The notes beneath the pieces are model-generated. The model saw only the letters and a program-made list of their open reading frames with translations, was not told the DNA's origin and did no database searches. This document shows positions 921 to 16,237 of a stretch of DNA of 64,000 nt, one piece after another. Numbering within the stretch: the stretch's first letter is position 1; every line of letters starts with the position of its first letter. The stretch is from IMG/VR virus record IMGVR_UViG_3300017917_002237, positions 1 through 64,000 of that record; one strand, 5' to 3'. Made by a program: the position numbers and the translations under genes. This DNA comes from a virus.

Positions 921-949
921 ATTGTATGATATTTATAGTTTGTTGTCAA
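921..949 (-). promoter_or_regulatory. sigma70-type promoter for tRNA-Thr
   Basis: TTGACA, 17 bases, TACAAT on the minus strand, ending about 20 bases before tRNA-Thr. It overlaps the stop codon of the desaturase gene upstream. A TATAAATA string also occurs inside the spacer. Confidence 0.75.
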
Positions 950-1707
950 TTATTTTTTCCGATTAGTTTCACCAACCACGCCACGGGGTCCAACTCCCAC
1001 CAACGAACCTGCGTATTAACTTGATCTGCACGAGCATGATGGTTGTTGTGCCAGGCGTCACCTAATATAAAAGGCCAAAGGTATATGTTGTTGGTGCTAC
1101 GGTCACGTGTGTCAAAATTTCTATAACCATGTTTGTGTGCAAAATAATTAAAAGCAATCTGTGATACACTGACCATGAACACTGGCACTGCCCATGCATA
1201 AAACAACAAATTATAATTTATAACTAACAGTGCTGTCAAGAACAGGGCAATCAAAAGCATATAATATTTGTCGATTTTGATGTGAGCTGGTGTCAATAGT
1301 TCTTTTACTATAAAATAATTAATCTTCTTTGTGTCGTCATAGACCGGTTTGAATCCAACAAACTTAAAGGTGTCATAGTGAGGACTATGTGGATCCTTTT
1401 CTGTATCGCTAGTTGCATGATGTATTCTATGTATGTAGACCCAGCCTAATGGACTACCGCGACCTGATAGTACAGCAAACACTGTGAATATCCACTTTAA
1501 TATAGGGTTCAGTTTAAAACTTTTGTGGCTATAGTACCTGTGTAGCATCATGCTAACGCCCAGGATACTGTAGCAATAAAAACAGACGACGGACAACAAA
1601 GCATATTGCCAGGTCGTGTCGACCACAAACATGCCCACTAGTATTAATACCAGAGAAAAGATTTGTAATATGAACAAGGATTTTGGTGTTGCGGATAGGT
1701 ATTTCAT
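946..1707 (-). CDS. membrane fatty-acid desaturase (acyl-CoA/ACP delta-9 type)
   Basis: The protein has about 253 residues with hydrophobic segments and the three histidine boxes of class III membrane di-iron desaturases: HRYYSH near residue 56, HRIHH near 93 and HNNHH near 229, followed by WWELDP. The family introduces a double bond into acyl chains bound to CoA, ACP or lipid, using O2 and an electron carrier. No electron carrier is visible nearby. The start is placed at the ATG at 1707: there is no Shine-Dalgarno sequence, but ACTAAATA lies exactly five bases upstream. It is last in a three-gene operon with another desaturase and an oxygenase. The substrate is unknown. Confidence 0.9.
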   Translation of the reverse strand: MKYLSATPKSLFILQIFSLVLILVGMFVVDTTWQYALLSVVCFYCYSILGVSMMLHRYYSHKSFKLNPILKWIFTVFAVLSGRGSPLGWVYIHRIHHATSDTEKDPHSPHYDTFKFVGFKPVYDDTKKINYFIVKELLTPAHIKIDKYYMLLIALFLTALLVINYNLLFYAWAVPVFMVSVSQIAFNYFAHKHGYRNFDTRDRSTNNIYLWPFILGDAWHNNHHARADQVNTQVRWWELDPVAWLVKLIGKNN

Positions 1708-1712
1708 ACAAA

Positions 1713-1720
1713 TATTTAGT
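1713..1720 (-). promoter_or_regulatory. late-type promoter box, leaderless spacing
   Basis: ACTAAATA, one of a set of TNTAAATA-like boxes, lies five bases before the desaturase ATG at 1707. The T4 late consensus is TATAAATA with transcription starting 6-7 bases downstream, which here would be at the ATG. Confidence 0.4.
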
Positions 1721-1737
1721 GATAACAAATATAGAGT

Positions 1738-2313
1738 TTAAAACAAACCAGAAACATCCATGCATTCTTCTACGGTCCTGGCTTCTGTGGCATGAATCTT
1801 CCAACGTACTGTAAACATGATTCTATGATGGTCAGTGTCGTTGGTCACGCCATGAAATACTGAATTATTGGTAATATAGGGCCTAGTTATCTCTAGTTGA
1901 GATACTAGTTTAAGTTTACTGCGATCTTTTGGTTGTCTTGCTGCCAGATAGCCTTCACCTGTTTTGTATTCCATGTTGTCCTCGTCTGCTTCATAGAACG
2001 AATGTAATGTGTTCTCCGTGCCCAGCACAGGGATATTCAAGGCAAATGGCACTGTTGGCTCAGTGCCATCTATATGTATGGCTAGACTACTGCGTGGGGG
2101 TGTTACATAGTATCTATACAGTCTAACAGGAAGTTTTAGCCTGGGTGCTAGCCATGACATGAAAAGCGGGCAATGTTCTACCATATATGGCAGTACATAG
2201 GTAAACGCATGCGGTTTGGTATGCTGTTTATAATCATGTGCTATACCCTGGAGAAGTTCTTTTTGTATAACTTCAAAATTAGGTATTGAGAAAGGTATGA
2301 ATAGCTCTTTCAT
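1738..2313 (-). CDS. putative 2-oxoglutarate/Fe(II) oxygenase
   Basis: The 191-residue protein has a cupin-type facial triad: H80-x-D82 (AIHIDG) and H154 (FHGV), with R164 in HHRIMFTVRW as the likely 2OG carboxylate ligand. Such enzymes hydroxylate or desaturate small molecules, lipids or peptides. Its ATG overlaps the TGA of the upstream desaturase (ATGA), and another desaturase follows, so an acyl or lipid substrate is plausible but not shown. It is one of six similar triad proteins within 10 kb. Confidence 0.65.
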   Translation of the reverse strand: MKELFIPFSIPNFEVIQKELLQGIAHDYKQHTKPHAFTYVLPYMVEHCPLFMSWLAPRLKLPVRLYRYYVTPPRSSLAIHIDGTEPTVPFALNIPVLGTENTLHSFYEADEDNMEYKTGEGYLAARQPKDRSKLKLVSQLEITRPYITNNSVFHGVTNDTDHHRIMFTVRWKIHATEARTVEECMDVSGLF

Positions 2314-3092
2314 CTACGAATTAATTCAATGACTCTGGCAGCAGGGTCGAATTCCCACCACTTGCCGCTAGTACCAGAACCAAAGTCATAGTTGCCGGGG
2401 CGAGCATGATGGTTGTTGTGCCAGCCTTCACCAAATGTAATTAGAGCATTGATCCAGAGATTGCGGCTATTGTCTGTAGTTTCGAAATTTCTATAACCCC
2501 ACATGTGATTCATATAGTTACTGGTTGTGCTGATCCATACACTGATCACAGCAGGAATTATAACCACGTGCATCATAAGCACACTTCCACCAATAGCGTA
2601 CCATATTACGGTCCAGGTACTAATCAGTGCAAAATACCAGGTGTGAGTGAATACATGAAATTTATCAAATATCAAGTGCCTGATCTTCCACTTGTCCGGT
2701 GTATAAGGATACGATGCTAACAACATACTAGCACCGCGTGTAACAGGGCTATGTGGGTCGCCTATTTTGTCACTATACTTGTGATGATCTCGATGCAGGC
2801 CGACCCAACCTATACTAGATCCTGTAAATGCCAGCATGCCACATACTGTACAAAGTCTTTCCCAGAATTTGCTGGTCTTGAAACTCTTATGTGTGAGCAG
2901 TCTGTGATAACCAATACTAATACCCAAACAACCTATGATGACATAGACCGCAAGGCTTAGTAGCCACAATGACAGATCCTGCGGGAACACAAAGATGAAG
3001 GCAGCGACCAAGATGGTTGCTGCCAACTGTATATAAGGTAGAAATTCTGTATTGCTAGCGAAGATGTTGTTGATTATTCTTTTGTAGGCCAT
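2310..3092 (-). CDS. membrane fatty-acid desaturase (second copy)
   Basis: About 260 residues. Histidine boxes are HRLLTH, HRDHH and HNNHH, followed by KWWEFDPAARVIELI. Two pairs of hydrophobic segments flank the boxes. The start is placed at the ATG of MAYKRI: a second ATG two codons upstream is possible, but the late-type box AATAAATA lies five bases before this one and there is no Shine-Dalgarno sequence. It shares more box sequence with the third desaturase (13110-13925) than with the first. It is the first gene of the desaturase-oxygenase-desaturase operon. Confidence 0.9.
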   Translation of the reverse strand: MAYKRIINNIFASNTEFLPYIQLAATILVAAFIFVFPQDLSLWLLSLAVYVIIGCLGISIGYHRLLTHKSFKTSKFWERLCTVCGMLAFTGSSIGWVGLHRDHHKYSDKIGDPHSPVTRGASMLLASYPYTPDKWKIRHLIFDKFHVFTHTWYFALISTWTVIWYAIGGSVLMMHVVIIPAVISVWISTTSNYMNHMWGYRNFETTDNSRNLWINALITFGEGWHNNHHARPGNYDFGSGTSGKWWEFDPAARVIELIRR

Positions 3093-3097
3093 GCACA

Positions 3098-3105
3098 TAT
3101 TTATT
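3098..3105 (-). promoter_or_regulatory. late-type promoter box, leaderless spacing
   Basis: AATAAATA on the minus strand lies five bases before the ATG at 3092. It fits the same arrangement as the boxes before 1707, 8247 and 46655. Confidence 0.45.
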
Positions 3106-3136
3106 TGTGCATGTCTATAGACCTACAATAATGTAT

Positions 3137-3213
3137 TGGCCTGACTGGAGGGAATCGAACCCCCAACCTACGGCTTAGAAGGCCGTTGCTCTATCCGGTT
3201 GAGCTACAGTCAG
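3137..3213 (-). tRNA. tRNA-Arg(TCT)
   Basis: Acceptor CTGACTG/CAGTCAG, anticodon loop CTTCTAA (anticodon TCT), T loop TTCGATT and encoded CCA. A complete cloverleaf on the minus strand. It reads AGA codons, which are frequent in the neighbouring AT-rich genes. Confidence 0.93.
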
Positions 3214-3214
3214 A

Positions 3215-3643: not shown

Positions 3644-3684
3644 TGTCAAGTCTTTCCGTTCTCAAGTGTAGTTACTAACGAGCA
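3578..3684 (-). tRNA. tRNA-like element with non-canonical body
   Basis: The ends pair well (TGCTCGT with ACGAGCG) and the 3' part has a T loop GGTTCGAATCC. The intervening 90 bases do not form a convincing D arm or anticodon arm, no CCA is encoded, and a protein frame overlaps it. It may be a degenerate tRNA, a tRNA with an insertion, or a structured processing signal. No anticodon is assigned. Confidence 0.3.
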
Positions 3685-3692
3685 TAAACTGG

Positions 3693-3784: not shown

Positions 3785-3785
3785 A

Positions 3786-3992: not shown

Positions 3993-3998
3993 AATACT

Positions 3999-4172: not shown

Positions 4173-4249
<77 letters not shown>

Positions 4250-4272
4250 AGTTATTTCTAACTGATATATCT

Positions 4273-4324: not shown

Positions 4325-4687
4325 TCAATCTGCCTGTCTGGTTAGATAATATTTTCTAAGATGTTGTGCTCCAAATGATTCTATCATGCTTTTTTCTACC
4401 ACCGCAGGATTAAAATCTTTACAACTAAAAACATCTAGATAGATTTGGCCCAGACCATCAACGAAATGTGCAACTATACTGCTGGTGACGATTATCTGTA
4501 CTACAGTAAAACCCGCCTTGTCAGGGAATTCTGCCGCTGTATATTCTATACGTGGCTCCCCAATCGGTTCCATATCAATATCTTTTACTAATTTTCTAAT
4601 CCAACGATCTACATTGTCTCTGTCAGACATTTTTGGTGTGTCACACCCGCCACAATCAATAATAAAATGATAACCCCAATAATTCAT
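4325..4687 (-). CDS. speD: S-adenosylmethionine decarboxylase, small bacterial type
   Basis: 120 residues, the size of class Ib AdoMet decarboxylase. The N-terminus (GYHFIIDCGGCD) matches the family's G-x-H-hydrophobic-D start. S69, H74 and C89 keep the spacing of the self-cleaving Ser, the processing His and the catalytic Cys (63/68/83 in the family). The usual Glu before the Ser is Thr here, so processing should be checked. The product, decarboxylated AdoMet, donates aminopropyl groups for spermidine. No aminopropyltransferase is visible in this window. It is last in a coupled operon (ATGA overlap with the GNAT-like gene). Confidence 0.8.
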   Translation of the reverse strand: MNYWGYHFIIDCGGCDTPKMSDRDNVDRWIRKLVKDIDMEPIGEPRIEYTAAEFPDKAGFTVVQIIVTSSIVAHFVDGLGQIYLDVFSCKDFNPAVVEKSMIESFGAQHLRKYYLTRQAD

Positions 4688-5181
4688 TTATTTTTCCTAA
4701 ACGCTGTTTTTAAAATACTCACAAATACTTCGCTATCTACAGGTGACCACTGGTTGCTATATAAAGAATTGTAATGTCTTGTAAATTGCGTTTTCTTCCA
4801 TGCTGGCACCTTATAATCTAAGAAAGTCATATATCTATCAGGTAGATAATTTTGTAAAAAATCTATTTCATAAGTTCTTGCTGCCCAGCAGAATCTTTTT
4901 AAACCAAAAGCCTCAAAACGTTCAATGGTATCATTTAGCAACGTGGGCAGCTCTTCTGCTTCATCACAATAATGCCCAATATAATGCCACTCGGGATATT
5001 CACCTGAATAGAAAGTACAGGATATAGATGTAAGATCATTTTCCTTGTAACTGCTAAAATTTCCAAAAGCATGCCATGACTTGAGCCCACTAAGATAGGT
5101 TTCTTTGAAGTCTTCAAGTCTAGAGGGTGGTAACAATTGTGCTACCTGGGCCAGATGGTCTATTCTTAATTTTTTAAGCAT
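4684..5181 (-). CDS. GNAT-like protein, paralogue of 13922-14545
   Basis: 165 residues with an YLSGL-S-HAFG motif near residue 28 and alternating strands resembling an acyl-CoA/ACP N-acyltransferase fold; I see no definitive acetyl-CoA loop. It clearly matches the protein at 13922-14545 (YLSGLNSFHAFG). Both genes lie directly downstream of a PP-loop ATPase and overlap its end, so the pair probably acts together. It starts eight bases before the PP-loop stop codon and ends at ATGA with speD. Confidence 0.6.
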   Translation of the reverse strand: MLKKLRIDHLAQVAQLLPPSRLEDFKETYLSGLKSWHAFGNFSSYKENDLTSISCTFYSGEYPEWHYIGHYCDEAEELPTLLNDTIERFEAFGLKRFCWAARTYEIDFLQNYLPDRYMTFLDYKVPAWKKTQFTRHYNSLYSNQWSPVDSEVFVSILKTAFRKNK

Positions 5182-6097
5182 TGTTTCCTCGTAATTTACT
5201 AATTACCTCATTGTATGTTAAATAGGGCTTGGTATCTCCTAGATTATCTGGCATTAACTTTGCCAGCTCTACTCTAGAATCAACCAGCATGCCGCGTAAA
5301 TTTTCAAACCCCGTTGTTTTTTCTTTATCACGTAAATCTGGCACCAACCTTTGTAAAATTTTATTTTTAACAGGGGTTATGGACCAATAGGGTGTTTTGT
5401 CATTGATTAGTTCAACTATATCTTGATCCTCAAGATAATAAAGCATCAGTTCAGGAGTATAACTGAACCATTCGATAATAAAAGGTATCTGATACTTCAT
5501 CGAAAACCTTACGTGTGCTGCTTCAAGAGTCTCTATGTTCCTAAGCACCCATTCTCCCTCAAAAGAATTATTAACATATTTCTCAATCAACAATTCACCA
5601 CCAAGTATAGCGGCGGTATTTAATTTTTTAGCCACCTGAAAAAATGCTAGAAATGGCAGCAATTCGCACTGTATTTTAACTGCTAAATTTGCCGCTGCAC
5701 CACTAAGATAAAAATCCTTCACATCAAAATCAACAATCTCATAGGGCAAGGATAATTCCTCTGCAACTGACACGGCCTCCTTGACTTCCCCTATATTATA
5801 ACCACCAGTAAAGTTTATAATTATACACTTGGGACGCAGGCCTTGTCTAGCAAAACTTCTTGCCATGATTTCACTATCAGAACCCCCTGATATAAACAAT
5901 GCCATATCATTCTTAAATTCATCATATTGTAATCGCGCCACCCTCAACAACTCTGACTGGTAATTATTTTTTGCATAGTATTCAGGGTCTATGGTGCCCA
6001 CATCTGTAGTATACTGCTGGTACTTGTTGGTTCTTACACCAAAGGGCACCCCATCAATAAAATGTTTAAGGTGATTATTGTGGGTAAAATTGTACAT
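5174..6097 (-). CDS. PP-loop ATPase, asparagine-synthetase-like domain only
   Basis: 307 residues with SGGSDS at 70-75, the ATP pyrophosphatase loop, and GGELL later. The family adenylates a carboxylate or carbonyl and lets an amine attack it, forming an amide. There is no N-terminal glutaminase domain, so ammonia or an amine must come from elsewhere. The N-terminus (NNHLKHFIDG) matches its paralogue at 14514-15473. Its ATG overlaps the TctC stop (TAATG). The substrate is unknown; location in a coupled operon with a GNAT-like protein and AdoMet decarboxylase suggests amide formation in one pathway. Confidence 0.75.
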   Translation of the reverse strand: MYNFTHNNHLKHFIDGVPFGVRTNKYQQYTTDVGTIDPEYYAKNNYQSELLRVARLQYDEFKNDMALFISGGSDSEIMARSFARQGLRPKCIIINFTGGYNIGEVKEAVSVAEELSLPYEIVDFDVKDFYLSGAAANLAVKIQCELLPFLAFFQVAKKLNTAAILGGELLIEKYVNNSFEGEWVLRNIETLEAAHVRFSMKYQIPFIIEWFSYTPELMLYYLEDQDIVELINDKTPYWSITPVKNKILQRLVPDLRDKEKTTGFENLRGMLVDSRVELAKLMPDNLGDTKPYLTYNEVISKLRGNNA

Positions 6098-6957
6098 TAC
6101 TTATAGGATTTTTGCCAAATTTTGACTTGATCATCAAATTGCTTTTTTGTGCCTTCTAAAGTAGAAGCCACTGGTCTAATACCCTTAGACTTAAAGAAGC
6201 TTGCATTAGCAGGGTCCTTGTTGAACTTCATACCAAGATCATTAAGCATCTTAACAAATTCAGGATCTGCTTTTTTGTTAGTCGCTAATAAGAACTGATT
6301 AACAACGTTTTGAGTTACTCCTAGACAGTCCTTGGTTGTTGGTAGCCCTTCAAAAACCGTGGAACCCGTGTTTGCCAACATGGTGATCTCTGGATTATCG
6401 TGCATTGTGGCAAAGAATATCATGTCAATCCGGCCGGCGATCAAATCAATTGTCGCTTGTGATGCACCCTTATAAGGTATATCAATGTATTTCTTGGGCT
6501 CATTATCAAACAGAATTTTTGCAGGTGCATAAGTGATACTATCTTTACCATTGGTACCAATGAATATTGGGCCGGGGGCCGCCTTCATTGATTGGCAAGT
6601 ATACTTCTTAGAAGCAGGTGTTCCAATCATCAATGGAGATTCTGCTAGAACAGATGTTATGGTGAACGCATCTTCTGCAAAAGTATTTTGTACTATATTT
6701 GCATAGTGGCTGCTAGAGTTAACCATAGCAACATTACCAGATGATTCCAATAGCCGTCTAGATGCCACCACGGAGCCTGCACCGGTTATGTTTTCTACTA
6801 TAACATTCTTGCCTGTTGTCTTTTCTACATGTATGGCAAACGTTCTTGCGACCGTATCTACTGCACCACCTGGTGCAAATGGTACGATTATTTTAAAATC
6901 CGCTAGGGCCATAGTTGGCGCTAGAAGTATTGCTACTATCGCTAGTAATTTTTTCAT
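6097..6957 (-). CDS. TctC/Bug-family periplasmic solute receptor
   Basis: A clear Sec signal peptide (KKLLAIVAILLAPTMALA) is followed by IVPFAPGGAVDTVAR, the ligand loop typical of the tripartite tricarboxylate transporter receptor family, and IPYKGASQA later. Mature length (about 265) is normal. The family is greatly expanded in Betaproteobacteria. The start at 6957 is supported by GGAG and by ATGA overlap with the upstream PP-loop gene. No TctA/TctB membrane partners are encoded here, so it would either use host partners or sense or sequester a metabolite. Confidence 0.9.
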   Translation of the reverse strand: MKKLLAIVAILLAPTMALADFKIIVPFAPGGAVDTVARTFAIHVEKTTGKNVIVENITGAGSVVASRRLLESSGNVAMVNSSSHYANIVQNTFAEDAFTITSVLAESPLMIGTPASKKYTCQSMKAAPGPIFIGTNGKDSITYAPAKILFDNEPKKYIDIPYKGASQATIDLIAGRIDMIFFATMHDNPEITMLANTGSTVFEGLPTTKDCLGVTQNVVNQFLLATNKKADPEFVKMLNDLGMKFNKDPANASFFKSKGIRPVASTLEGTKKQFDDQVKIWQKSYK

Positions 6958-8183
6958 TTTGAACTCCATTTCCAATCTTTAATTATGTATGGTTGACTAT
7001 AAAATGATATACTGTTTATTGGGAAATTTTCGATGTTATATCTAAAATATCCCTCGTCCTCTCTGAGGAGTTTCTTCCACTTTTTAACCCATCTATTTCT
7101 ACTAGGAGTAGTTCCCCTAAGAAACCACAGATCCTTTGTAGAAAATATAACGCTACCTGTTACCTTGTCATTGCCAAAGTCGTCAGGATTTTCATCCGGA
7201 TAGATGATCTTTTCTACTTCTTTCTTTTTAACCCACTTGCCGTTGGGGGAACCATAACCTATAGGATGCTCTACAAAGGGCCCGGTGGTGGTAATAAACC
7301 CAATATCTACAATTCTATCATCATCAAGTGATCTAATATCATTGATCATGTCCACCAATAGATGGCATTGTTTGATGGTGATTTCTGGCATGTCTGGGGT
7401 GACAAAAAATGGTTCATCATAGAAATTTTTAAGTACGCCGCCCAAGACCTTCCTGTTAACATATGGACGTACAGAATATTCAGACACACTGTCAGTAAAT
7501 TTAAAACACCATTTACCGTCTATTTCAAATAGATTGGGTTTGTCGTATCCCCACATGTAGCATATTGTCTTGCCTTCTTTGCTTAATTCAACATGATGTT
7601 CAATTTTTAATTTAAAGAAGTGCGAGCGTAATGCCAGATACCATGATGGCAATGGACCATTGTAAAAATACTGAAATTTTTCATAGTAATTGTCATCCAA
7701 AAACTGATCTAACTGTAATTGTCCAAAGTCTACGTAGGTAACTCGAGTTCCCTTGTCTTCAAGATTTAATGACTGTACATATGGTATAGCCATCTTCACT
7801 ACTTCTTGATTTATTTTGGCAGTCTCTGGTAGATACTTTTTGTTCCCTGCTATGACAACCTCATCCAATTTAATATTATTCTTAACAAAGGTGTTTAAAA
7901 TAACATGGCTATCTATTCCGCCACTGTAAAGTAAAACCACATAGTCAAATTTATCTCGTAGCTGCTGGGCACGTCGTTTATAAAGCTCCTGTAAAGATTC
8001 TTCTGGTTCCTTTTGCCAATCTAACTCCTCCATCTTGTTGTCGTTGAAGATGAATTTGATATCGCTAGCTGGCAGGTTCTTATTCTGAGCTATTTTCCAG
8101 GCTTCATATTTACTGAAAGTTTTGACACCATCAATCTCAAAGTAGCCGTATTTTGTAAATTGTTCTTCTGAATTAAAGTACAC
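6954..8183 (-). CDS. PP-loop ATPase, asparagine-synthetase-like, longer type
   Basis: 409 residues. The PP loop SGGIDS lies at 87-92 after a helical N-terminal region, and there is no glutaminase Cys at the N-terminus. It starts with GTG, preceded by AGGAG at ideal spacing. An exact TATAAATA late-type box lies about 20 bases upstream, so it heads the operon PP-loop, TctC, PP-loop, GNAT-like, speD, in which every junction overlaps. It is less similar to the two other island PP-loop proteins than they are to each other. Amide or thioamide chemistry is expected; substrate unknown. Confidence 0.75.
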   Translation of the reverse strand: MYFNSEEQFTKYGYFEIDGVKTFSKYEAWKIAQNKNLPASDIKFIFNDNKMEELDWQKEPEESLQELYKRRAQQLRDKFDYVVLLYSGGIDSHVILNTFVKNNIKLDEVVIAGNKKYLPETAKINQEVVKMAIPYVQSLNLEDKGTRVTYVDFGQLQLDQFLDDNYYEKFQYFYNGPLPSWYLALRSHFFKLKIEHHVELSKEGKTICYMWGYDKPNLFEIDGKWCFKFTDSVSEYSVRPYVNRKVLGGVLKNFYDEPFFVTPDMPEITIKQCHLLVDMINDIRSLDDDRIVDIGFITTTGPFVEHPIGYGSPNGKWVKKKEVEKIIYPDENPDDFGNDKVTGSVIFSTKDLWFLRGTTPSRNRWVKKWKKLLREDEGYFRYNIENFPINSISFYSQPYIIKDWKWSSK

Positions 8184-8210: not shown

Positions 8211-8233
8211 TATTAACGTCGTTGATTGCCATG

Positions 8234-8241
8234 TGTAAATA
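8234..8241 (+). promoter_or_regulatory. late-type promoter box, leaderless spacing
   Basis: TGTAAATA on the plus strand, followed by five bases and the ATG at 8247. It is divergent from the minus-strand box at 8203. No Shine-Dalgarno sequence is present. Confidence 0.45.
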
Positions 8242-8246
8242 TCTAT

Positions 8247-8927
8247 ATGACCGTATTATTTCAGCAGCTAGACAATTTACCGCAGCCACCTGGAAATTTA
8301 GTAGACAGTGTAATTGATCAATGGATTAAAAAATATGGTACTTTTGATCGATATGGTAGCTTTCCAAACATAAGCATGGACCTTAGGGACTCAGTAAAAG
8401 CAAAAATATTCCAGAGAGTCAGCACATTTGATCCAATAACTCATGAAATCGGTGCTTGGCTCAAAGACAATATATTTAGAAACATTAGACAGCATTCAGA
8501 TTGGATACTGCGTGTGTCGCACATTCACTGGCAGGCATTTAAGAAAGACCAGTTAATTGAAATTTATGAAAAGCATTTAGATTCTAGAAATGCATCACCT
8601 CTATTAGAGGATAACAGCTTTGTTCTTATCTATAATATAACAGATTCAATTGGAGATTTTGTTATCTATCAGGAAGCAGGAAAGCCACTGATAAGAACAG
8701 AAGATAGACCTGTATACAAAAAGCCAACAGACGAAATACATCAACTACCTCATGAAACATTAAAATTCAACGACTGCATAGAGATTGAAAGACATAGGCC
8801 CATGCCAAGAACATGGTATCTTAGCAGGATAGATGTAATTCATGCAGTTGAGAATAGCAATCAAATACCCAGGGTTGCACTTCAAATACGCCTTACAGAG
8901 AGCGAGGCCAGGAATTTAATGAAATGA
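8247..8927 (+). CDS. putative 2OG/Fe(II) oxygenase
   Basis: 226 residues. KHLDSR supplies H110-x-D112 followed by a conserved-looking Arg. FVIYQE resembles the next strand, and IDVIHAVENSNQIPRVAL gives H199 and R209 in the order expected for the double-stranded beta-helix. The start is placed at the ATG at 8247 and not at an upstream TTG, because the late-type box lies five bases before it. It is followed by another oxygenase-like gene on the same strand. Substrate unknown. Confidence 0.6.
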   Translation: MTVLFQQLDNLPQPPGNLVDSVIDQWIKKYGTFDRYGSFPNISMDLRDSVKAKIFQRVSTFDPITHEIGAWLKDNIFRNIRQHSDWILRVSHIHWQAFKKDQLIEIYEKHLDSRNASPLLEDNSFVLIYNITDSIGDFVIYQEAGKPLIRTEDRPVYKKPTDEIHQLPHETLKFNDCIEIERHRPMPRTWYLSRIDVIHAVENSNQIPRVALQIRLTESEARNLMK

Positions 8928-8940: not shown

Positions 8941-8967
8941 ATACTTCGGTACTAAATACTGAAGTAT
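8941..8967. repeat. hairpin before the 8966 start codon
   Basis: ATACTTC (8941-8947) and GAAGTAT (8961-8967) form a 7-bp stem around a loop that contains ACTAAATA. It overlaps the ATG at 8966. It could terminate the upstream gene, hide the start codon in read-through RNA, or be incidental to a late-type promoter. Confidence 0.4.
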
Positions 8968-9604
8968 GAGTTATTATCGCAGGCTAAATTTACCTAAAAA
9001 TCCAGTTAAAAAAGTACCTAATTTTGTGGCCGCCTATGATGGACAGGTGGTTGCAGATCCCTATGAAGAATTAACAGATGAATTTTTAGATATACTAAGC
9101 AGACTAAATCTCACACCAAATGTTTTATTTTTCTTCTGTAAAGGCGACAAAGAATCTAATTTAGAGTCACGAGTGTTACACAGTGACATAACTAGGGCGG
9201 ACCCACACCCCTGGTACCCCTCAGATGAACCAAGCAAAAAAACCTGGAAGGACATAATATGCGGACTAAACTGGGAGATGTCAGGGTCAAAGACAGAATT
9301 CATTTTCTATGACACCACACACTTAGAAGGTCTTTATCCTGTACGTAAGGATTTGCCACTAAAATATGACTATCTAAACAGTGTCCACTATGTAAAACGA
9401 AGTAACTTTGGTATACCGGAAGGTGCGGTAAGATTAGATACAGTGCTGCTTAATGAAATTCCTACCATGGTTAGAACAGAAACTCCTCATATTACAGCCT
9501 ATTCTGGTGACAACATTAGAGTAGGGGCCAGTCTTAGATTCAAAGAAGATTGGACTACATGGGAGGAAGCATTAGAAAGATTCAGACCATTAATAATTGA
9601 ATAA
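8966..9604 (+). CDS. putative 2OG/Fe(II) oxygenase
   Basis: 212 residues. The triad candidates are H72-x-D74 (VLHSDI) and H175 (TPHITAYSGDN), with R185/R191 in IRVGASLRF for 2OG binding. The C-terminus resembles other phage oxygenases. ACTAAATA lies seven bases before the ATG. Its end overlaps by 15 bases the end of the convergent gene 9590-10216, so the two transcripts may interfere. Confidence 0.6.
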   Translation: MSYYRRLNLPKNPVKKVPNFVAAYDGQVVADPYEELTDEFLDILSRLNLTPNVLFFFCKGDKESNLESRVLHSDITRADPHPWYPSDEPSKKTWKDIICGLNWEMSGSKTEFIFYDTTHLEGLYPVRKDLPLKYDYLNSVHYVKRSNFGIPEGAVRLDTVLLNEIPTMVRTETPHITAYSGDNIRVGASLRFKEDWTTWEEALERFRPLIIE

Positions 9605-10216
9605 TATTTTTCTAGCAGCAAAAAAATCTATATTATCGTTTGTACTTCTTAAAGTAAGAATAGTTCTCTCGTTGGGGCTTCTATAGTTGTTGACGTCGTG
9701 AAACAGATCTACATTGAATAATATTACATCATTCTGTTTGGCCACCATACTCTTTACTGGAACTATTTTATCCCATTCAAGGCTTCTGTTGTAGTCACCG
9801 ATTTCTCTACTTCGTGCTTTGCCAATTGGGGCAGCTTCTAAGGTATCAATTGGTCTACCAGCAAATTGTTCATCATCATACCAAGAGGTAACACATTTAT
9901 TATCTTTTACATCTACGATATAATTGATACCCATTTTACAAGACAATCCGTCCTTGTGCGGTCTGTAATAGAATCTAGGTTGAGTCACAAACAGAGACAC
10001 TCTTGTTTTTAAAAAGCTAAATTGATCTACATATGGTATGTAATTTAGTATTTGTTCTGCATCATCTAGTGGCAATCTATGATGCACAAATTTATTTGTA
10101 TATTTTCCGTCAACCTGGTTTACTTTAAATTTTTTAGACAGGTCTATTATCTTGTCAGAATCTGTATGACGATAACGAATAAAATATGGGCTGCAATCTT
10201 CAATTAGTTCGATCAT
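9590..10216 (-). CDS. putative 2OG/Fe(II) oxygenase
   Basis: 208 residues with a convincing triad: H87-x-D89 (YRPHKDG), H173 (LFHDVNN) and R184 (NERTILTLR). The arrangement matches small prolyl-hydroxylase-like or carrier-tethered hydroxylases. Its ATG overlaps the stop of the upstream aspartyl-hydroxylase-like gene (ATGA type). It is last of a four-gene run: radical SAM, three oxygenases. Confidence 0.7.
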   Translation of the reverse strand: MIELIEDCSPYFIRYRHTDSDKIIDLSKKFKVNQVDGKYTNKFVHHRLPLDDAEQILNYIPYVDQFSFLKTRVSLFVTQPRFYYRPHKDGLSCKMGINYIVDVKDNKCVTSWYDDEQFAGRPIDTLEAAPIGKARSREIGDYNRSLEWDKIVPVKSMVAKQNDVILFNVDLFHDVNNYRSPNERTILTLRSTNDNIDFFAARKILFNY

Positions 10217-10863
10217 ACCGCAATTTTTCCCGTAGTCTTCACACCATAAGTATCTGTTTCTGGTGTTGTATTGTAGTAATATAACACTCTTCGACGGGGA
10301 TGTCTGTTTACTAATCTTTCTTCCGCCAACTGTTTTGTATCTAAGAAATCAATTAACAAACTTGTCTTGGGTGTGGCCTTAGATGAATTTTTAGCAAAAT
10401 GTGTTGTTATATTATCAATCTCATAGACGTTGGGGGTTTCTAATTTAAAATAACGTTCACGTGAAACAAAGTAGGCGTTGTCAACTAGCAGCGGCACTTG
10501 TATTCGCCTGCCACATAGATGATAAAAACGAACATCGTTATGTCGTTTTAATTCTTGGCCCGGATCTAGGTAGCTTATCTCACAAGAAAAAATAGTCATA
10601 TCATTAAACTGTGGCCAAGTTCTTAGCTCATTTAATATGTCTATAACAGATGAGAAGTCTAAATCACTGACATCCTGATCATAAGCAGAGCTGTCTACAA
10701 TGGGGGCCTGTAAAGATACAAGATAATTAGAATATCGCAGGGCAGGCTCTTCTCTGGCAAATCTTTTTTCCTTATAATCAATGCTTAATGCAAAATCACT
10801 AGCGCGATCAATTAATTTTTGATCCAACTGTCCTATAACTTTGCATCCCTCTCTGAAAAACAT
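10213..10863 (-). CDS. aspartyl/asparaginyl beta-hydroxylase-like oxygenase
   Basis: 216 residues. H108-x-D110 (KRHNDVRFYH), RRIQVPLLVDN and H155 within YEIDNITTHFAKN follow the pattern of the aspartyl/asparaginyl beta-hydroxylase family. The usual Arg after the second His is replaced by Lys/Thr (KATPKTSLLIDF), which may alter 2OG binding. GGAGAGG precedes the ATG. It lies between two other oxygenases. Confidence 0.7.
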   Translation of the reverse strand: MFFREGCKVIGQLDQKLIDRASDFALSIDYKEKRFAREEPALRYSNYLVSLQAPIVDSSAYDQDVSDLDFSSVIDILNELRTWPQFNDMTIFSCEISYLDPGQELKRHNDVRFYHLCGRRIQVPLLVDNAYFVSRERYFKLETPNVYEIDNITTHFAKNSSKATPKTSLLIDFLDTKQLAEERLVNRHPRRRVLYYYNTTPETDTYGVKTTGKIAV

Positions 10864-10880: not shown

Positions 10881-11543
10881 TTAATGTTTAGAAATATATT
10901 TGTAACGAGTATCAGGCCCGCCATACCCGCTTAGACGTACAGGATTATTGATAACTGCATCTATATCTATCTTATTTTTCCATTCTTCAAGAAGCTCAGG
11001 TTTGTAGATATCAAATCCCAGGAAATAAAAATTATCACTGGTTGTGTTTCTAAATTCATGTAGATCTTTCGCAGGACTAAATGTCCACAATGTGCCTTGG
11101 TCTGACCCCACAGATTGTTTATTAATGTTTACTATAATAGATCCAGGTGCGTGCTTAGATACAAAAAATATGTATCTAACAATCATATTATGATATGTGA
11201 AATCATCTTTATGTGGCATGATTGTGTGCCCGGGAGGTACTCTCCATGCACACATTCTACCAAAAGGTACACCGTCGTTTCCTGTCAAAGTTCTAATAAA
11301 TTTTGCAAACTCTATCGTCAATGGTAGTTCAGGATTCCACTCTTCCGGTTCTGCAACAGCAGCAGCCACCATGCTTTCGTGATCGAAATAATTTAAATTT
11401 CTATTCATGAATTTCATATATGCCTGTTCAAATATTTTGTGTTTGTTGGATACCGGATGAAACCATCCATTGGGTGCCGAATCTAATTCTTTAAAGATCA
11501 GTTTTGCCCAGTCTTGAAATTGAGTGCTTATATAATTTAGCAT
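10881..11543 (-). CDS. aspartyl/asparaginyl beta-hydroxylase-like oxygenase
   Basis: 220 residues. H111-x-D113 (IMPHKDDFTYHN), a GTLWTFSPAKDLHEF strand with H162, and a C-terminal extension with GYGGPDTRYK. Its ATG lies inside the last codons of the radical SAM gene, so the two are translated together. It probably hydroxylates a product of that enzyme or a shared scaffold; this is inference. Confidence 0.65.
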   Translation of the reverse strand: MLNYISTQFQDWAKLIFKELDSAPNGWFHPVSNKHKIFEQAYMKFMNRNLNYFDHESMVAAAVAEPEEWNPELPLTIEFAKFIRTLTGNDGVPFGRMCAWRVPPGHTIMPHKDDFTYHNMIVRYIFFVSKHAPGSIIVNINKQSVGSDQGTLWTFSPAKDLHEFRNTTSDNFYFLGFDIYKPELLEEWKNKIDIDAVINNPVRLSGYGGPDTRYKYISKH

Positions 11544-13021
11544 GTTGCCCCCTTAACAATTCTGTTGAATTCCTTTGATACACGTTCTTGCGTGTCTAGT
11601 TCTATTAGATATTTTAGTATTTTATGCGGCATATTATCATCCAAGTTTTCATCTGCAACACCTGCTTGCCATAGGCCTGCAATTCTCCAGCCTCCTGACC
11701 GAACAAATTTCTGTGACTTTATCATTAATTTTTTTGCCAGATAATTTGCCTGGTATCTTGTCCAATGGTCGTTATACCAATTGCCTCTCTGGTCAAACTT
11801 ATATCCAAAACTTTCAGGATCCTTGTCAAATGTAGACAATACGTCGCCGGCAAGAGGTTTGGTACCAGTATATATTCTCAAACTCAAAGGTTCAATGTGC
11901 CAGGATCTAAAAAATGTATTTTGTTCGCTTACTAGAAAATTATATGTTTCAGTCACTAATTCTGGTGTATCATAAGGAAGGCCTGCAATAAAACTAGCAT
12001 GAACTCTAACTTGATTATTATTTGCTTCGCCTAATTTTTTACAAACGTCCAGAACCTTTTCCACTTTAGTTCCCTTACCAATAACTTTTCTTGTTTCTTC
12101 GTTAAAACTTTCCATGCCAATAAATGCACCCTTTAATCCTAGATCAACTAGCATATCAATCATCTCGGGTTTGGTTACTAATATCTCTGGTTTAATATAC
12201 GCAACAAATTCAAAATTAGGTATATCAGCTAATTTCACTGCTTCAGTGAGTCTATGAACTTTTTCTATACTGTCGTTGAACGTATCATCTAATACTGTAT
12301 ATCTTGTTGTTCCGAACAATTCGTAGTTACGTGAAAGCTCACTTGCAATATTATTTATAGATCTCTGATAGCTATCGTAATATTTCTTGCCTTGGAAGGG
12401 GTGTCTACAAAATCCGCACCTAAATATACAACCCCTCGCTACTTCAATAGGCAATGGTTGATGTTTTTTAAAATTATCTTCTTTAAGAAAAATAGTTTCT
12501 AAATCATCAGGATTGGTAACAGCATGGTTTTTATTGCTGTCAATCATATAGACCTGTTTGTTATCCTCAATCTTCATTGGTGTGAACGTTAAAGTATGAT
12601 CTTGGCCATGGATCATTTTTAAAAATTCAACGAAGCTATCATCACTATATCCATGGAAATGATAATTTGCGTTTTCAAGTAGAAAACCCTTGTTGTATTC
12701 ATCGTGGCCGCCGGTGATTATTAAAAGATTGGGCCAGCGTCTTTTCACTGTATCAAAGAATTTGACATTATACCATGGATAAAATTGTATAGTGCCCGGG
12801 TCTATCCATGAAGCACTCAATCCTATAAATTTTGTTTCTTTTGTTATCGCTTTGTCTAGCAATTCAAAGATCTGATCAAGAGTAAGGCTGTTGATAAAAT
12901 CAACAATCATTACATTGAAACCGGCCCTGCTTGCTGCTGTTCTAAGCCTGGGACCTGCTATACCTCTGCCTGCAAATTCAAAATTTTGGCCGAAAAGTAA
13001 TATTCCACAATAGTCGATCAT
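11537..13021 (-). CDS. B12-binding-type radical SAM enzyme
   Basis: 494 residues. The N-terminal 150 residues resemble a cobalamin-binding Rossmann domain (PRLRTAASRAGFNVMIVDF, IITGGHDEY), though the cobalamin His motif is not obvious. C198, C202 and C205 (CIFRCGFC) form the CxxxCxxC cluster of the radical SAM core. Members methylate unactivated carbons, build thioethers or rearrange rings. It heads the run of three oxygenases, all overlapping. AT-rich sequence with TATGATAAAAT lies upstream; no clear promoter. Confidence 0.8.
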   Translation of the reverse strand: MIDYCGILLFGQNFEFAGRGIAGPRLRTAASRAGFNVMIVDFINSLTLDQIFELLDKAITKETKFIGLSASWIDPGTIQFYPWYNVKFFDTVKRRWPNLLIITGGHDEYNKGFLLENANYHFHGYSDDSFVEFLKMIHGQDHTLTFTPMKIEDNKQVYMIDSNKNHAVTNPDDLETIFLKEDNFKKHQPLPIEVARGCIFRCGFCRHPFQGKKYYDSYQRSINNIASELSRNYELFGTTRYTVLDDTFNDSIEKVHRLTEAVKLADIPNFEFVAYIKPEILVTKPEMIDMLVDLGLKGAFIGMESFNEETRKVIGKGTKVEKVLDVCKKLGEANNNQVRVHASFIAGLPYDTPELVTETYNFLVSEQNTFFRSWHIEPLSLRIYTGTKPLAGDVLSTFDKDPESFGYKFDQRGNWYNDHWTRYQANYLAKKLMIKSQKFVRSGGWRIAGLWQAGVADENLDDNMPHKILKYLIELDTQERVSKEFNRIVKGATC

Positions 13022-13109
13022 AATTCATATTTTATCATATACCTGCTGGTATATTTGTATTCTTTATTTAAGCCGATTATTGTAATAGAATTTTCGATTT
13101 TGAATTCTT

Positions 13110-13925
13110 TTATTTTGATGCTGTAGGTTTGCCTATGAAAGGTATGAATATTACGCAGGGGTCAAATTCCCACCACTTACCGCTTACGCCGCGGCCGAAG
13201 TCAAACGCACTGGCCTTATAGTGATGGTTATTATGCCAAGCCTGGCCCCAGGTCAGATAACCCAGTATAGGATTATTTTGACTATTGTCTTTAGTATCAA
13301 AATTTCTATAGCCTATAACTGCCTTGGTGTGCCCAAACACGTTGACTAGGTTATCCTGGAATAAGCCTATCATCGTAACCAACCAAAAACCAGTAAGAGC
13401 CAGGCGCCAGTCAAATACTGCAACTGCCAGTGGTGTTAGCCATAGAATTCTTAGATAATGTTTATGGAAAAAACTATGATTAGGTTTTCTCAACATATCC
13501 AATGAATACTTAATGCTTATAGGCATTTCACGTTCTGTAATAGTTCTATACCAGCCCACAAATGCATGCCACTTGCCATAGACCACAGGACTATGAATAT
13601 CCCTGGGTTGGTCTGCATATGGGTGATGATATCCTCTATGCAAAGATGTCCAGAAAATGCTGCTACCCTGGCCTGCAAATACAGCGAAAAATAATATTAC
13701 GGATTCTTTCCAGGTAGGAAGTTTATGTGTTCTATGACTGAAGATTCTATGATAACCCACAGCAATGCCTAGCCCACATACCAAGACCCACATTACAAAA
13801 GTGGCCCACAAATAGTAAGCGGGAATAATGCCCATAGCAAGTAACGCTATGGTAAATGAACCTATTATCATTGCTGGTACGAATTGAAACCAGAATGATT
13901 TTGACATGCCTGTTAAAAATGTCAT
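13110..13925 (-). CDS. membrane fatty-acid desaturase (third copy)
   Basis: 271 residues with HRIFSH, HRGYHH and HNNHH boxes, four hydrophobic stretches and KWWEFDP near the end. It is coupled to the GNAT-like gene by ATGA overlap and so belongs to the operon GNAT-ACP, PP-loop, GNAT-like, desaturase. An ACP in the same operon makes an acyl-ACP substrate an attractive guess. Confidence 0.9.
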   Translation of the reverse strand: MTFLTGMSKSFWFQFVPAMIIGSFTIALLAMGIIPAYYLWATFVMWVLVCGLGIAVGYHRIFSHRTHKLPTWKESVILFFAVFAGQGSSIFWTSLHRGYHHPYADQPRDIHSPVVYGKWHAFVGWYRTITEREMPISIKYSLDMLRKPNHSFFHKHYLRILWLTPLAVAVFDWRLALTGFWLVTMIGLFQDNLVNVFGHTKAVIGYRNFDTKDNSQNNPILGYLTWGQAWHNNHHYKASAFDFGRGVSGKWWEFDPCVIFIPFIGKPTASK

Positions 13926-14545
13926 ATGTGTCCTCCTATGGGCAGCTCTGTCCTATATTCTTGTTTTAAATAATTACAACGGACAACACTATCCTCAGGC
14001 ACTAACCAACGCTTGAATAATAACTCCCAATGATTGCCATAGAAACATTTTGCCTTGGCGGGTACGACGAACTCATCAAAATAACCATATCGTTCGTCAT
14101 TTTCCTTGCTCCAATGAAATCTACGTAGAAGTCTAGAATGTTTTTTATGCACCAGAGTATAGAATTTAAGCCTTCCATTGCTTTCATTATATTTAATCAC
14201 TTCGTCCAGAACAGCTCGTAATTTCTCATTATCTCCCAGACTTCTATATAAGGTATAATACCAAGCAGGTTCTTCATTGCTCTCATAGAAACTAATGGCG
14301 GCCTGGACTTCGTCATTTTCCACCCAGCCAAAAGCATGAAAACTATTTAGGCCGCTTAGATAGTTAGAACAAAATACATGATATAGTCTGGTATTAAATT
14401 GCTCTGTTGGTGATGCTGGGATATTTTTAAAAGTTCCTAAAGTAAACTCGGGGGTATCTGCTATGACATTGCCCATGTACTTTTCATTATTGAACAACCC
14501 CCTGACGGCGGCTTTATGACTGCTGTTCAACTTCACTACTGACAT
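13922..14545 (-). CDS. GNAT-like protein, paralogue of 4684-5181
   Basis: 207 residues from the ATG at 14545, chosen because GGAGAAG lies just before it; a longer start at 14557 is possible. NYLSGLNSFHAFG near residue 75 and the following strand-helix pattern match the protein at 4684-5181. It overlaps the PP-loop gene upstream by about 30 bases and the desaturase downstream by ATGA. Function is probably acyl or aminoacyl transfer, but the fold assignment is tentative. Confidence 0.6.
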   Translation of the reverse strand: MSVVKLNSSHKAAVRGLFNNEKYMGNVIADTPEFTLGTFKNIPASPTEQFNTRLYHVFCSNYLSGLNSFHAFGWVENDEVQAAISFYESNEEPAWYYTLYRSLGDNEKLRAVLDEVIKYNESNGRLKFYTLVHKKHSRLLRRFHWSKENDERYGYFDEFVVPAKAKCFYGNHWELLFKRWLVPEDSVVRCNYLKQEYRTELPIGGHI

Positions 14546-15473
14546 AATCTTCTCCATGTAAACTTTTGTATAAATCTCTTATGTAAATGCCATCCAGACT
14601 GGATTCTAGCCTTTTTACATAACATTGTGAAAGGGCAGCATATGTTTCGCCATTAAATCCTAATATTTTTTCAAACCCATGTGTCTTTATTTTCTTAACA
14701 ATGTCAGGCATGTAGGTATACAACACTGAATTCTTAGTACTGACGCTGGTGAGTTTATAATTATTTTCAGTTAGCATACTCTTGATCACAGGATGTTCTA
14801 GATAATAACCCATCATCTCAGGTGTATAACTGAACCATTCATTTACTAGCGGTATGCCATACTTATGGCTAAAACGCATGGCGCTGGCGTCCTCGTTTTC
14901 TCTGAAGCAATAGGACCACTCGCTAAAGTTTGGTTTTGTTATTCGCTTCATCAGCATCTCCCCACCCATGACCGCAGGCAAACATAATTTTGCTACGTGG
15001 TAGTATACAGAAAGATAAGCCATCTGACTGCACTGTAATTCAGTGGCAAGCTCTGCGGCTAAGCCGCTGCGATAGAAATTAATAATGTCAAAGGGTATGA
15101 TCTCCAGTTTCAAATCCATGCTATTGGCTATTTGTATAGCATAAACCATGTCTCCATGATTATAGTCATTGTTGAATTTGATAAAAACTACCCTGGGCGT
15201 CACGCCGATATGTTTGAAGGCTCTTAGTACTATTTCACTATCAGTACCACCACTAAACATCACAACAAAGTCCTTGCCGTATTCTCTGCGAATTATATCG
15301 GCAGTTCTATATTGTTCTTGGACCCAATTGCTAGTAGCATAATGATCTTTGTCAATGGCTCCTACAGATACTTTAAATTTATCCGTGACCTGTTCCCTGT
15401 AGCCAAAGTCTCTATAACCGGTTACATCACTACCAATTTTATATTTTAAATGGTTATTGTATGTGAAATTCAT
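14514..15473 (-). CDS. PP-loop ATPase, asparagine-synthetase-like domain only
   Basis: 319 residues, SGGTDS at 74-79, GGEMLMKR later; same length, N-terminus (NNHLKYKIG) and order of motifs as 5174-6097. No glutaminase domain. The ATG overlaps the stop of the GNAT-ACP gene (ATGA). Proximity to an acyl carrier protein suggests that it forms an amide with a carrier-bound or free acyl group; not proven. Confidence 0.75.
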   Translation of the reverse strand: MNFTYNNHLKYKIGSDVTGYRDFGYREQVTDKFKVSVGAIDKDHYATSNWVQEQYRTADIIRREYGKDFVVMFSGGTDSEIVLRAFKHIGVTPRVVFIKFNNDYNHGDMVYAIQIANSMDLKLEIIPFDIINFYRSGLAAELATELQCSQMAYLSVYYHVAKLCLPAVMGGEMLMKRITKPNFSEWSYCFRENEDASAMRFSHKYGIPLVNEWFSYTPEMMGYYLEHPVIKSMLTENNYKLTSVSTKNSVLYTYMPDIVKKIKTHGFEKILGFNGETYAALSQCYVKRLESSLDGIYIRDLYKSLHGEDYVSSEVEQQS

Positions 15474-16237
15474 TTCATTAAGGACATTAGGTCTCTAACA
15501 AACACCACTCTGGCATCTGCAGACAATTCTATGCCTTGATCGTCTTCGTAGAACATTTGAAGCTCAACAATGTCCAGACTATCTAAACCAAGGTCTAAAA
15601 GTCTCGCATCAGGTGTAATTGGTACTTTGGGCTCTTTATTGAATTGTGATTTGATGGCATTGTTGATATACTCAAGTTTTTCTTGATCTGTCATGATTTT
15701 CCTCGTTAATTGAACCACATACTGTGTAGTATTATATATAGTCATTTTATTCAATGGTTTGAACTGCCTGTATATGTCAGGCCAATCATTGAACAAACTG
15801 GTACGTTTATTTTGGCTTGCTCTTACAAACCAATCGTAGATCATTTTATTATGTTCGTTTACTGTTATCCATAATTTTCTATAATTAGCGGTTTCTAATA
15901 TAATTTTTGGCAATATGTATTTGGCCATGGGATATTGGCCTCGGTATTCAGGAGAAACATAGGCTCTGGTCAATCCCAATGCTACATTTGAATCTTCTTC
16001 ATATTCGTTCCACCCAGCAGAACATACGATTTTCCCCTCGTCCTCTACGATGTAATATTTCCCATAAAATTTTCTGTATCTACCAGATCTTAAAACGTAA
16101 AAAAGATTACCGTGCTCATCACGGTAATCTGGGTGGTAATTTCTTATTATATTTGGATCAGAAACTTTCATGAGTTCTGTCCCCAACAACTTTAATAAGT
16201 CTAGGTTACTGTTGTCGTGTAATTCATGAATTATCAT
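15470..16237 (-). CDS. GNAT acyltransferase fused to acyl carrier protein
   Basis: 255 residues. Residues 1-180 resemble a GNAT acyltransferase (AYVSPEYRGQYPMAKYILP corresponds to the acetyl-CoA-binding loop and helix). Residues 182-255 are a normal-size ACP with LGLDSLDIVELQM, whose Ser carries phosphopantetheine. An in-frame ATG at 15694, preceded by GAGG at good spacing, could give a free 74-residue ACP as well as the fusion. It heads the operon with PP-loop, GNAT-like and desaturase genes. No phosphopantetheinyl transferase is seen here, so a host enzyme would be needed. Confidence 0.8.
   Translation of the reverse strand: MIIHELHDNSNLDLLKLLGTELMKVSDPNIIRNYHPDYRDEHGNLFYVLRSGRYRKFYGKYYIVEDEGKIVCSAGWNEYEEDSNVALGLTRAYVSPEYRGQYPMAKYILPKIILETANYRKLWITVNEHNKMIYDWFVRASQNKRTSLFNDWPDIYRQFKPLNKMTIYNTTQYVVQLTRKIMTDQEKLEYINNAIKSQFNKEPKVPITPDARLLDLGLDSLDIVELQMFYEDDQGIELSADARVVFVRDLMSLMK
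15695..15705 (-). promoter_or_regulatory. internal ribosome binding site for the ACP domain
   Basis: CGAGGAAAATC directly precedes an in-frame ATG at 15694, at the exact domain boundary between the GNAT and ACP parts. It would allow separate translation of a free ACP. Confidence 0.5.

What the first reader, a model, noticed from the sequence alone, without database searches (positions are those of the whole stretch)
946..16237. Phage-borne biosynthetic island: desaturases, 2OG oxygenases, PP-loop ligases, ACP, AdoMet decarboxylase
Between 0.9 and 16.2 kb I find three desaturases, six proteins with a 2OG/Fe(II) triad, three asparagine-synthetase-like PP-loop ATPases, two GNAT-like paralogues, a GNAT-ACP fusion, AdoMet decarboxylase, a B12-type radical SAM enzyme and a TctC receptor. 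Almost all are in overlapping operons. Family knowledge says these make unsaturated acyl chains, amides, polyamine precursors and hydroxylations. Inference: they form one pathway that builds or decorates an acyl-amide (perhaps acyl-polyamine or acyl-amino acid) metabolite or a lipid/surface group. No described phage pathway known to me has this gene set.
Basis: partly seen in the sequence, partly recalled or inferred. Interest (0 to 1): 0.92.

Follow-up and report, generated by a model that had tools for sequence, protein, structure and literature searches.

The report
Phage-only acyl-amide biosynthesis gene island
This virus of bacteria carries a compact set of enzyme genes that about 60 distinct uncultured phages keep together in fixed order and that I did not find in the bacterial, plasmid or cultured-phage collections searched; the set probably builds an unsaturated fatty acyl chain and joins it to an amine, but the product and its use are unknown.

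Summary
More important, the genes recur. An IMG/VR search found 77 viral loci, 62 distinct with the window (ppA under 97% identical), sharing one core. A PP-loop ATPase (ppA) is translationally coupled to a GNAT protein (gap 20 nt or less in 58 of 60). A Delta9-type membrane desaturase is adjacent in nearly all. A second GNAT and a dedicated acyl carrier protein lie upstream in many. Catalytic motifs are conserved, dN/dS is mostly 0.01-0.15, and the genes share histories (Mantel r 0.43-0.72). No ortholog was found in GTDB contigs, 398 Pseudomonadota genomes, plasmids or 50,697 cultured-phage records. 2OG oxygenases, radical SAM enzymes and PP-loop paralogues are enriched around the core. A further PP-loop gene is usually paired with TctC. 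This is therefore a phage-specific, modular biosynthetic island, not scattered host-derived metabolic genes. SpeD occurs in 1 of 23 contigs, so the polyamine reading is not supported. The GNAT-ACP fusion is private to the window. The most likely product is an unsaturated N-acyl amide or aminolipid; this is inferred from enzyme classes, and product and role are undetermined.

The parts
15470..16237 (-). GNAT1-ACP ORF (255 aa): N-terminal GNAT acyltransferase, C-terminal acyl carrier protein (about residues 182-255) with the DSL phosphopantetheine serine
   Evidence: PF00550 over cut-off, weak Acetyltransf_7; TIGR00517 acyl_carrier E 1e-7; separate genes in relatives; internal ATG with GAGG upstream
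14514..15473 (-). ppA, core PP-loop ATPase (319 aa, SGGTDS), no glutaminase domain
   Evidence: 77 viral loci; AlphaFold2 pLDDT 83.6; Foldseek to asparagine synthetase, LarE, MnmA, carbapenam synthetase
13922..14557 (-). gnatA, core GNAT-fold protein overlapping the end of ppA
   Evidence: alignment A2; AlphaFold2 pLDDT 77 and Foldseek GNAT hits E 1e-6; no sequence hit in Pfam or PDB
13110..13925 (-). desatC, core Delta9-type membrane desaturase, three His boxes
   Evidence: PF00487; A4 profile hits stearoyl-CoA desaturase 4ymk E 5e-25; His boxes
11537..13021 (-). B12-type radical SAM enzyme, accessory, recurrent
   Evidence: PF04055; TIGR04479 E 1e-23, TIGR04072 E 4e-15; family in 23 loci
10881..11543 (-). 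2OG/Fe(II) oxygenase-like, Asp_Arg_Hydrox type (HKD)
   Evidence: PF05118 E 0.004, below cut-off; relatives in 7 loci
10213..10863 (-). 2OG/Fe(II) oxygenase-like, Asp_Arg_Hydrox type (HND)
   Evidence: PF05118 E 0.018, below cut-off; 68% identical gene directly after the core desaturase in L008
9590..10216 (-). 2OG/Fe(II) oxygenase-like (HKD)
   Evidence: HxD and later His; family in 25 loci
8966..9604 (+). possible 2OG oxygenase (HSD), opposite strand
   Evidence: motif only; no family match
8226..8927 (+). possible 2OG oxygenase (HLD), opposite strand
   Evidence: motif only; no family match
6954..8183 (-). ppC, second type of PP-loop ATPase (SGGIDS), partner of TctC
   Evidence: TctC within 50 nt on the same strand in most relatives; 45% identical gene with TctC right after the core in L011
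6097..6975 (-). TctC/Bug-type periplasmic binding protein
   Evidence: PF03401 E 2e-14; in 13 of 23 contigs
5174..6097 (-). ppB, paralogue of ppA (35%)
   Evidence: blastp E 1e-64
4684..5181 (-). gnatB, paralogue of gnatA (31%)
   Evidence: blastp E 1e-12
4325..4687 (-). SpeD-family pyruvoyl decarboxylase; not recurrent, substrate unknown
   Evidence: PF02675; 1 of 23 contigs
2310..3098 (-). desatB, accessory desaturase
   Evidence: PF00487 E 4e-20
1738..2313 (-). 2OG/Fe(II) oxygenase-like (HID)
   Evidence: motif; family in 19 loci
946..1728 (-). desatA, accessory desaturase
   Evidence: PF00487 E 3e-18

Best explanation
A phage-specific, modular acyl-amide biosynthetic island. The core operon is GNAT1 - ACP - PP-loop ligase (ppA) - GNAT (gnatA) - Delta9-type membrane desaturase. 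Proposed working: a fatty acyl chain is held on the phage ACP (or on host ACP/CoA in phages that lack it) and desaturated by the membrane desaturase. ppA activates a carboxylate as an adenylate, and the GNATs transfer the acyl group to an amine, giving an unsaturated N-acyl amino compound or aminolipid. Swappable 2OG hydroxylases, extra desaturases and a B12-type radical SAM enzyme then decorate it. A ppC-TctC pair handles a further amide step and a periplasmic ligand. The likeliest destination is the envelope of the infected cell. Shown: fixed gene order, conserved motifs, purifying selection, co-inheritance, and no ortholog found in the cellular collections searched. Inferred from families: each chemical step. 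Speculative: product identity and envelope destination.
For: 77 IMG/VR loci. ppA-gnatA gap 20 nt or less in 58 of 60; desaturase directly after gnatA or directly before ppA in nearly all. His boxes intact in 53-55 of 55, SGGxDS in 62 of 62, ACP DSL serine in essentially all ACPs. dN/dS mostly 0.01-0.15, up to 0.29. Mantel r with ppA 0.72 (gnatA), 0.49 (desaturase), 0.43 (GNAT1), all P 0.0005. All 8 PP-binding hits in 23 contigs lie at the core, and in the window the ACP is fused to GNAT1. In 11 contigs over 100 kb, PF05118 oxygenases (12 of 19 within 10 kb, expected 2.7, P 9e-7), radical SAM (17 of 48, expected 5.3, P 5e-6) and PP-loop paralogues (7 of 15, expected 1.7, P 6e-4) cluster at the core. 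Desaturase profile hits stearoyl-CoA desaturase.
Against: No PPTase, acyl-AMP ligase or thioesterase was seen among the island genes scanned (these were not searched for in whole contigs), so acyl loading would rely on host enzymes or on ppA. A class of cores with the desaturase upstream (15 distinct loci, 14 without GNAT1 and ACP) shows the ACP is not indispensable. ppA relates to QueC, LarE, MnmA and asparagine synthetase alike, so its reaction could be sulfur or nitrile chemistry. No amine substrate is identified. The clustering test counts hits from related contigs as independent, so its P values are optimistic.
Confidence: 0.5

Rival explanations
1. A diffusible small molecule (antibiotic, siderophore-like chelator or signal) made in the infected cell, rather than an envelope lipid. 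The variable tailoring genes give each phage its own variant, and TctC binds or recovers it.
For: Constant core with swappable tailoring enzymes looks like a natural-product gene cluster. ppC-TctC pairs recur. Foldseek hits include carbapenam and beta-lactam synthetases.
Against: No exporter, NRPS, PKS or resistance gene was seen at the core. TctC clustering at the core is weak. The beta-lactam link is fold-level only.
Confidence: 0.22
2. Protein modification: the island acylates or hydroxylates a phage or host protein (tail fibre, or a small ribosomal peptide).
For: Asp_Arg_Hydrox, B12 radical SAM and SPASM enzymes are common in peptide modification. In Pelagibacter phage Mosig an analogous set lies beside tail-fibre genes.
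Against: The core genes overlap, leaving no room for a precursor peptide. Core position relative to tail genes varies. A membrane desaturase beside an ACP is not usual in such systems. Separate small precursor ORFs were not searched for systematically.
Confidence: 0.12
3. Nucleic-acid modification: PP-loop, GNAT and radical SAM enzymes modify tRNA or phage DNA.
For: PP-loop relatives include TilS, MnmA and QueC. tRNA genes and a TilS-like gene sit in or beside the island.
Against: Neither the desaturase nor the ACP fits, and the desaturase is next to ppA-gnatA in nearly every phage.
Confidence: 0.08
4. Acyl-polyamine pathway fed by the phage SpeD (part of the first reader's proposal).
For: SpeD is next to gnatB and ppB in the window; SpeG is among many GNATs matched by gnatA.
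Against: SpeD occurs in only 1 of 23 contigs. Phage SpeD homologues can be ornithine or arginine decarboxylases (PMC10407285, PMC9992855). GNAT folds match one another broadly.
Confidence: 0.05
5. Unrelated host-derived metabolic genes that happen to accumulate in one region.
For: Cultured phages are known to carry single desaturases or mixed metabolic islands.
Against: Fixed order in about 60 distinct phages, no cellular orthologs found, shared histories, significant clustering.
Confidence: 0.03

Closest known systems
Phage and cyanophage fatty-acid desaturases (Roitman et al. 2018, seen only as a citation in PMC11480375; PMC7300359; PMC7678222)
   Same: Phage-encoded Delta9-type membrane desaturases of the stearoyl-CoA type, proposed to alter host lipids
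   Different: There single desaturase genes, some best matched by host genes; here embedded in a coupled core with a PP-loop ATPase, GNATs and ACP, with the closest bacterial desaturases found at 37% identity or less
Pelagibacter phage Mosig EXVC030M hyper-variable island (MT647606, 54.7-71 kb)
   Same: Two Asp_Arg_Hydrox oxygenases, a desaturase, a TauD oxygenase, a GNAT with weak similarity to GNAT1 (20.8 bits), and MoaA-like proteins
   Different: No ppA, gnatA or ACP detected in the stretch examined
Bacterial ornithine-lipid pathway (OlsB, OlsA, OlsC/D/E; PMC3972451)
   Same: Acyl-ACP-dependent N-acylation of an amino acid, followed by hydroxylation
   Different: No OlsA-type acyltransferase seen and the GNATs do not match the OlsB family; adds a PP-loop ligase and desaturase
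Asparagine synthetase, beta-lactam and carbapenam synthetases
   Same: PP-loop ATPase fold (Foldseek E 2e-6 to 9e-5)
   Different: No glutaminase domain, no Asn_synthase sequence match, about 10% identity
Phage QueC-type and 'asparagine synthase' proteins of uncultured Caudovirales (BFVD)
   Same: Best structural neighbour A0A6J5TAF3, TM 0.79, 25% identity, uncharacterised
   Different: No function assigned

Membership tests
Delta9-type membrane fatty-acid desaturase (PF00487, SCD/DesC type) | Pfam profile over cut-off and three His boxes | tested here: met
Delta9-type membrane fatty-acid desaturase (PF00487, SCD/DesC type) | Desaturation at C9 of an acyl-CoA, acyl-ACP or lipid | not testable with these tools
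   needs expression and fatty-acid analysis
Acyl carrier protein | PP-binding domain with DSL serine | tested here: met
   PF00550 22.2 bits, cut-off 20.8; DSL serine in relatives
Acyl carrier protein | Reaches the curated cut-off of the fatty-acid-synthase AcpP model | tested here: not met
   TIGR00517 31.5 bits against 70.45; a divergent, dedicated ACP
Asparagine synthetase B | PF00733 sequence match plus N-terminal glutaminase domain | tested here: not met
   no PF00733 match to ppA; only about 65 residues precede the PP-loop motif, too short for a glutaminase domain
PP-loop (N-type) ATP pyrophosphatase superfamily | SGGxDS motif and PP-loop fold | tested here: met
   62 of 62; Foldseek E 1.6e-6
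GNAT superfamily (gnatA) | GNAT fold | tested here: met
   Foldseek E 1e-6, probability 1.0
LuxI-type or OlsB-type acyl-ACP-dependent GNAT | Match to those Pfam families | tested here: not met
   no such match for GNAT1 or gnatA
S-adenosylmethionine decarboxylase (SpeD) | PF02675 over cut-off; Ser63/His68/Cys83 equivalents (T. maritima numbering) | tested here: met
   residues present at the right spacing (S-x4-H-x14-C) by reading
S-adenosylmethionine decarboxylase (SpeD) | AdoMet rather than ornithine or arginine as substrate | not testable with these tools
   phage homologues vary (PMC10407285); TIGR03330 37.5 bits against 75.65
B12-binding radical SAM methyltransferase | Radical SAM core and similarity to B12-binding members | tested here: met
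   PF04055; TIGR04479 E 1e-23, all below their curated cut-offs; no separate B12-binding Pfam match
Host-derived auxiliary metabolic gene | Close relative in a cellular genome | tested here: not met
   ppA: none in GTDB contigs, 398 Pseudomonadota genomes (only PP-loop motif hits of about 27 bits or less) or plasmids
2OG/Fe(II) oxygenase (six window proteins) | Curated family cut-off reached | tested here: not met
   PF05118 below cut-off for two, none for four; several relatives in other phages do pass

The most novel reading that the evidence does not exclude
Tailed phages have evolved their own biosynthetic pathway, absent from cells, that makes a phage-specific class of acylated metabolite or lipid, with a constant core and phage-by-phage variation of the decorations.
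Probability: 0.4. Interest if true: 0.9.

Novelty: new variant of a known kind. Interest (0 to 1): 0.72.

Why it matters
Phage metabolic genes are usually read as single borrowed host genes that tune host metabolism. Here a multi-enzyme core is shared by about 60 distinct phages, under purifying selection, and was not found in cellular genomes. That would mean phages maintain biosynthetic chemistry of their own. Five short genes are enough to express and test, so the question of what it makes is directly answerable.

Tried and rejected
Chance accumulation: rejected by fixed order and clustering. Polyamine branch: SpeD in 1 of 23 contigs. LuxR-type signalling: two GerE proteins at 56.8-58.5 kb looked like a partner, but no other contig has one over the cut-off. 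Defence system: PADLOC gave only weak PP-loop hits and a radical SAM hit. Bacterial counterpart through the desaturase: the 80 closest bacterial loci (37% identity or less) have no ppA, gnatA or GNAT1 neighbour. Acinetobacter 'phage' MD-2021a desaturase: its neighbours look chromosomal, so not used as a phage precedent. The PDB search with ppA returned many HIV gp120 chains, taken as compositional chance hits. The PDB search with SpeD gave only chance hits. Literature searches found no description of the core; only open-licence PMC papers are searchable.
Full report
The observation. Pfam supports the desaturases, SpeD, TctC, radical SAM, ACP and, just outside, a TilS-type PP-loop protein. The three PP-loop proteins and the two GNAT-like paralogues have no meaningful Pfam match; they are recognised by motif, by paralogy (ppA-ppB 35%, gnatA-gnatB 31%) and, for ppA and gnatA, by predicted structure (AlphaFold2 pLDDT 83.6 and 77; Foldseek to PP-loop ATPases and to GNATs). 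The six 2OG proteins rest mainly on an HxD motif and a later histidine, with Pfam support below cut-off for two.

Whether it is phage. The record is a 68,172-base viral contig in which no terminase match was found. It carries a tail-fibre gene. Relatives include contigs of 524, 210 and 136 kb with a large terminase, and others place the core a few kilobases from ribonucleotide reductase, glutaredoxin and PAAR-like genes (by reading).

Recurrence. A single-sequence search gave 10 loci and a profile search 77. In these, ppA is followed directly by gnatA (58 of 60 within 20 nt, median overlap 4 nt). The desaturase lies directly after gnatA or directly before ppA. GNAT1 lies near ppA, mostly upstream, in about half, and an ACP gene sits just before ppA in roughly 30 loci. 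After removing ppA sequences at least 97% identical, 62 distinct loci remain, window included. Two arrangements exist: GNAT1-ACP-ppA-gnatA-desaturase, and desaturase-ppA-gnatA often followed by an Asp_Arg_Hydrox and a TauD oxygenase and mostly without GNAT1 and ACP. On the ppA tree the upstream arrangement needs about 4 changes.

Function and co-inheritance. Motifs are intact throughout. dN/dS between close pairs is mostly 0.01-0.15, with GNAT1 and gnatA reaching about 0.29 in one pair each. Distances of gnatA, desaturase and GNAT1 follow those of ppA (Mantel r 0.72, 0.49, 0.43). All PP-binding matches in 23 contigs lie at the core.

Clustering of accessories. In eleven contigs over 100 kb, PF05118 oxygenases, radical SAM enzymes and PP-loop paralogues are enriched within 10 kb of the core. 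The test treats hits from related contigs as independent, so the P values are optimistic. Extra desaturases are only weakly clustered (3 of 6). TctC is in 13 of 23 contigs and lies within 50 nt of a ppC gene in most cases, a second linked module.

Absence elsewhere. No ppA relative was found in GTDB contigs by pattern scan, in 398 Pseudomonadota genomes by profile (only the PP-loop motif rings, about 27 bits or less), in plasmids or in cultured phages. gnatA and ppC also have none in cultured phages. The pattern scan used two short peptides and could miss divergent members.

Working model. The ACP and desaturase point to acyl chains; GNATs next to an ACP point to acyl transfer to an amine; a PP-loop ATPase without a glutaminase domain fits adenylation of a carboxylate with an amine as acceptor. 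The simplest reading is an unsaturated N-acyl amine, amino acid or aminolipid, hydroxylated and possibly methylated. The ornithine-lipid pathway shows comparable logic in bacteria (PMC3972451). Each chemical step is inferred from the enzyme family; none is shown.

The core is smaller than the 15 kb island. SpeD is not part of it, and phage SpeD homologues are not always AdoMet decarboxylases (PMC10407285, PMC9992855). The GNAT-ACP fusion is private to the window among the loci examined: relatives have an ATGA overlap, and the window retains the ACP's own ATG with a GAGG sequence upstream, so a one-base change or a sequence error could explain it.

Scores. That a conserved phage core operon exists I hold at about 0.9; the acyl-amide chemistry at about 0.5; the envelope destination at about 0.3.

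Noticed in passing
56061-58462: A short TctC-like protein (PF03401, over cut-off) followed by two proteins with LuxR/GerE-type HTH domains; not recurrent in 22 related contigs.
   Followed up: partly
49514-51939: A subtilisin-like protease ORF directly after a tail-fibre gene overlaps a radical SAM ORF (PF04055 at 51103-51354).
   Followed up: no
59322-59789: Small tail-fibre-like protein with a collagen-like GPP repeat.
   Followed up: no
L084:3954-4871: Gram-negative porin-like ORF just past the window end; by reading it resembles Burkholderiales porins, a hint to the host, as are the TctC proteins.
   Followed up: no
23694-24281, 43257-44991, 51930-52457, 54935-55480: Host-like ORFs that read as ClpP, IF-3, ClpX, adenine phosphoribosyltransferase and a peroxiredoxin (by reading only).
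   Followed up: no
17818-18954 and 29346-30104: Two serine hydrolases of beta-lactamase or penicillin-binding-protein appearance (by reading only).
   Followed up: no
G003:C1:293779-305176 (contig of L057, 524 kb) and G001:C1:43415-57279 (contig of L004): Arrays of six or more radical SAM genes away from the core.
   Followed up: no
G003:C1:105029-170691 (contig of L057): A second region with PP-loop, TctC, desaturase and PF05118 genes far from the core.
   Followed up: no
L165: Record named Acinetobacter phage MD-2021a carries what look like bacterial chromosomal genes around its desaturase.
   Followed up: no
L172:8702-25306: Pelagibacter phage Mosig, a cultured phage, has a related oxygenase-desaturase-GNAT-MoaA island beside tail fibres.
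   Followed up: partly
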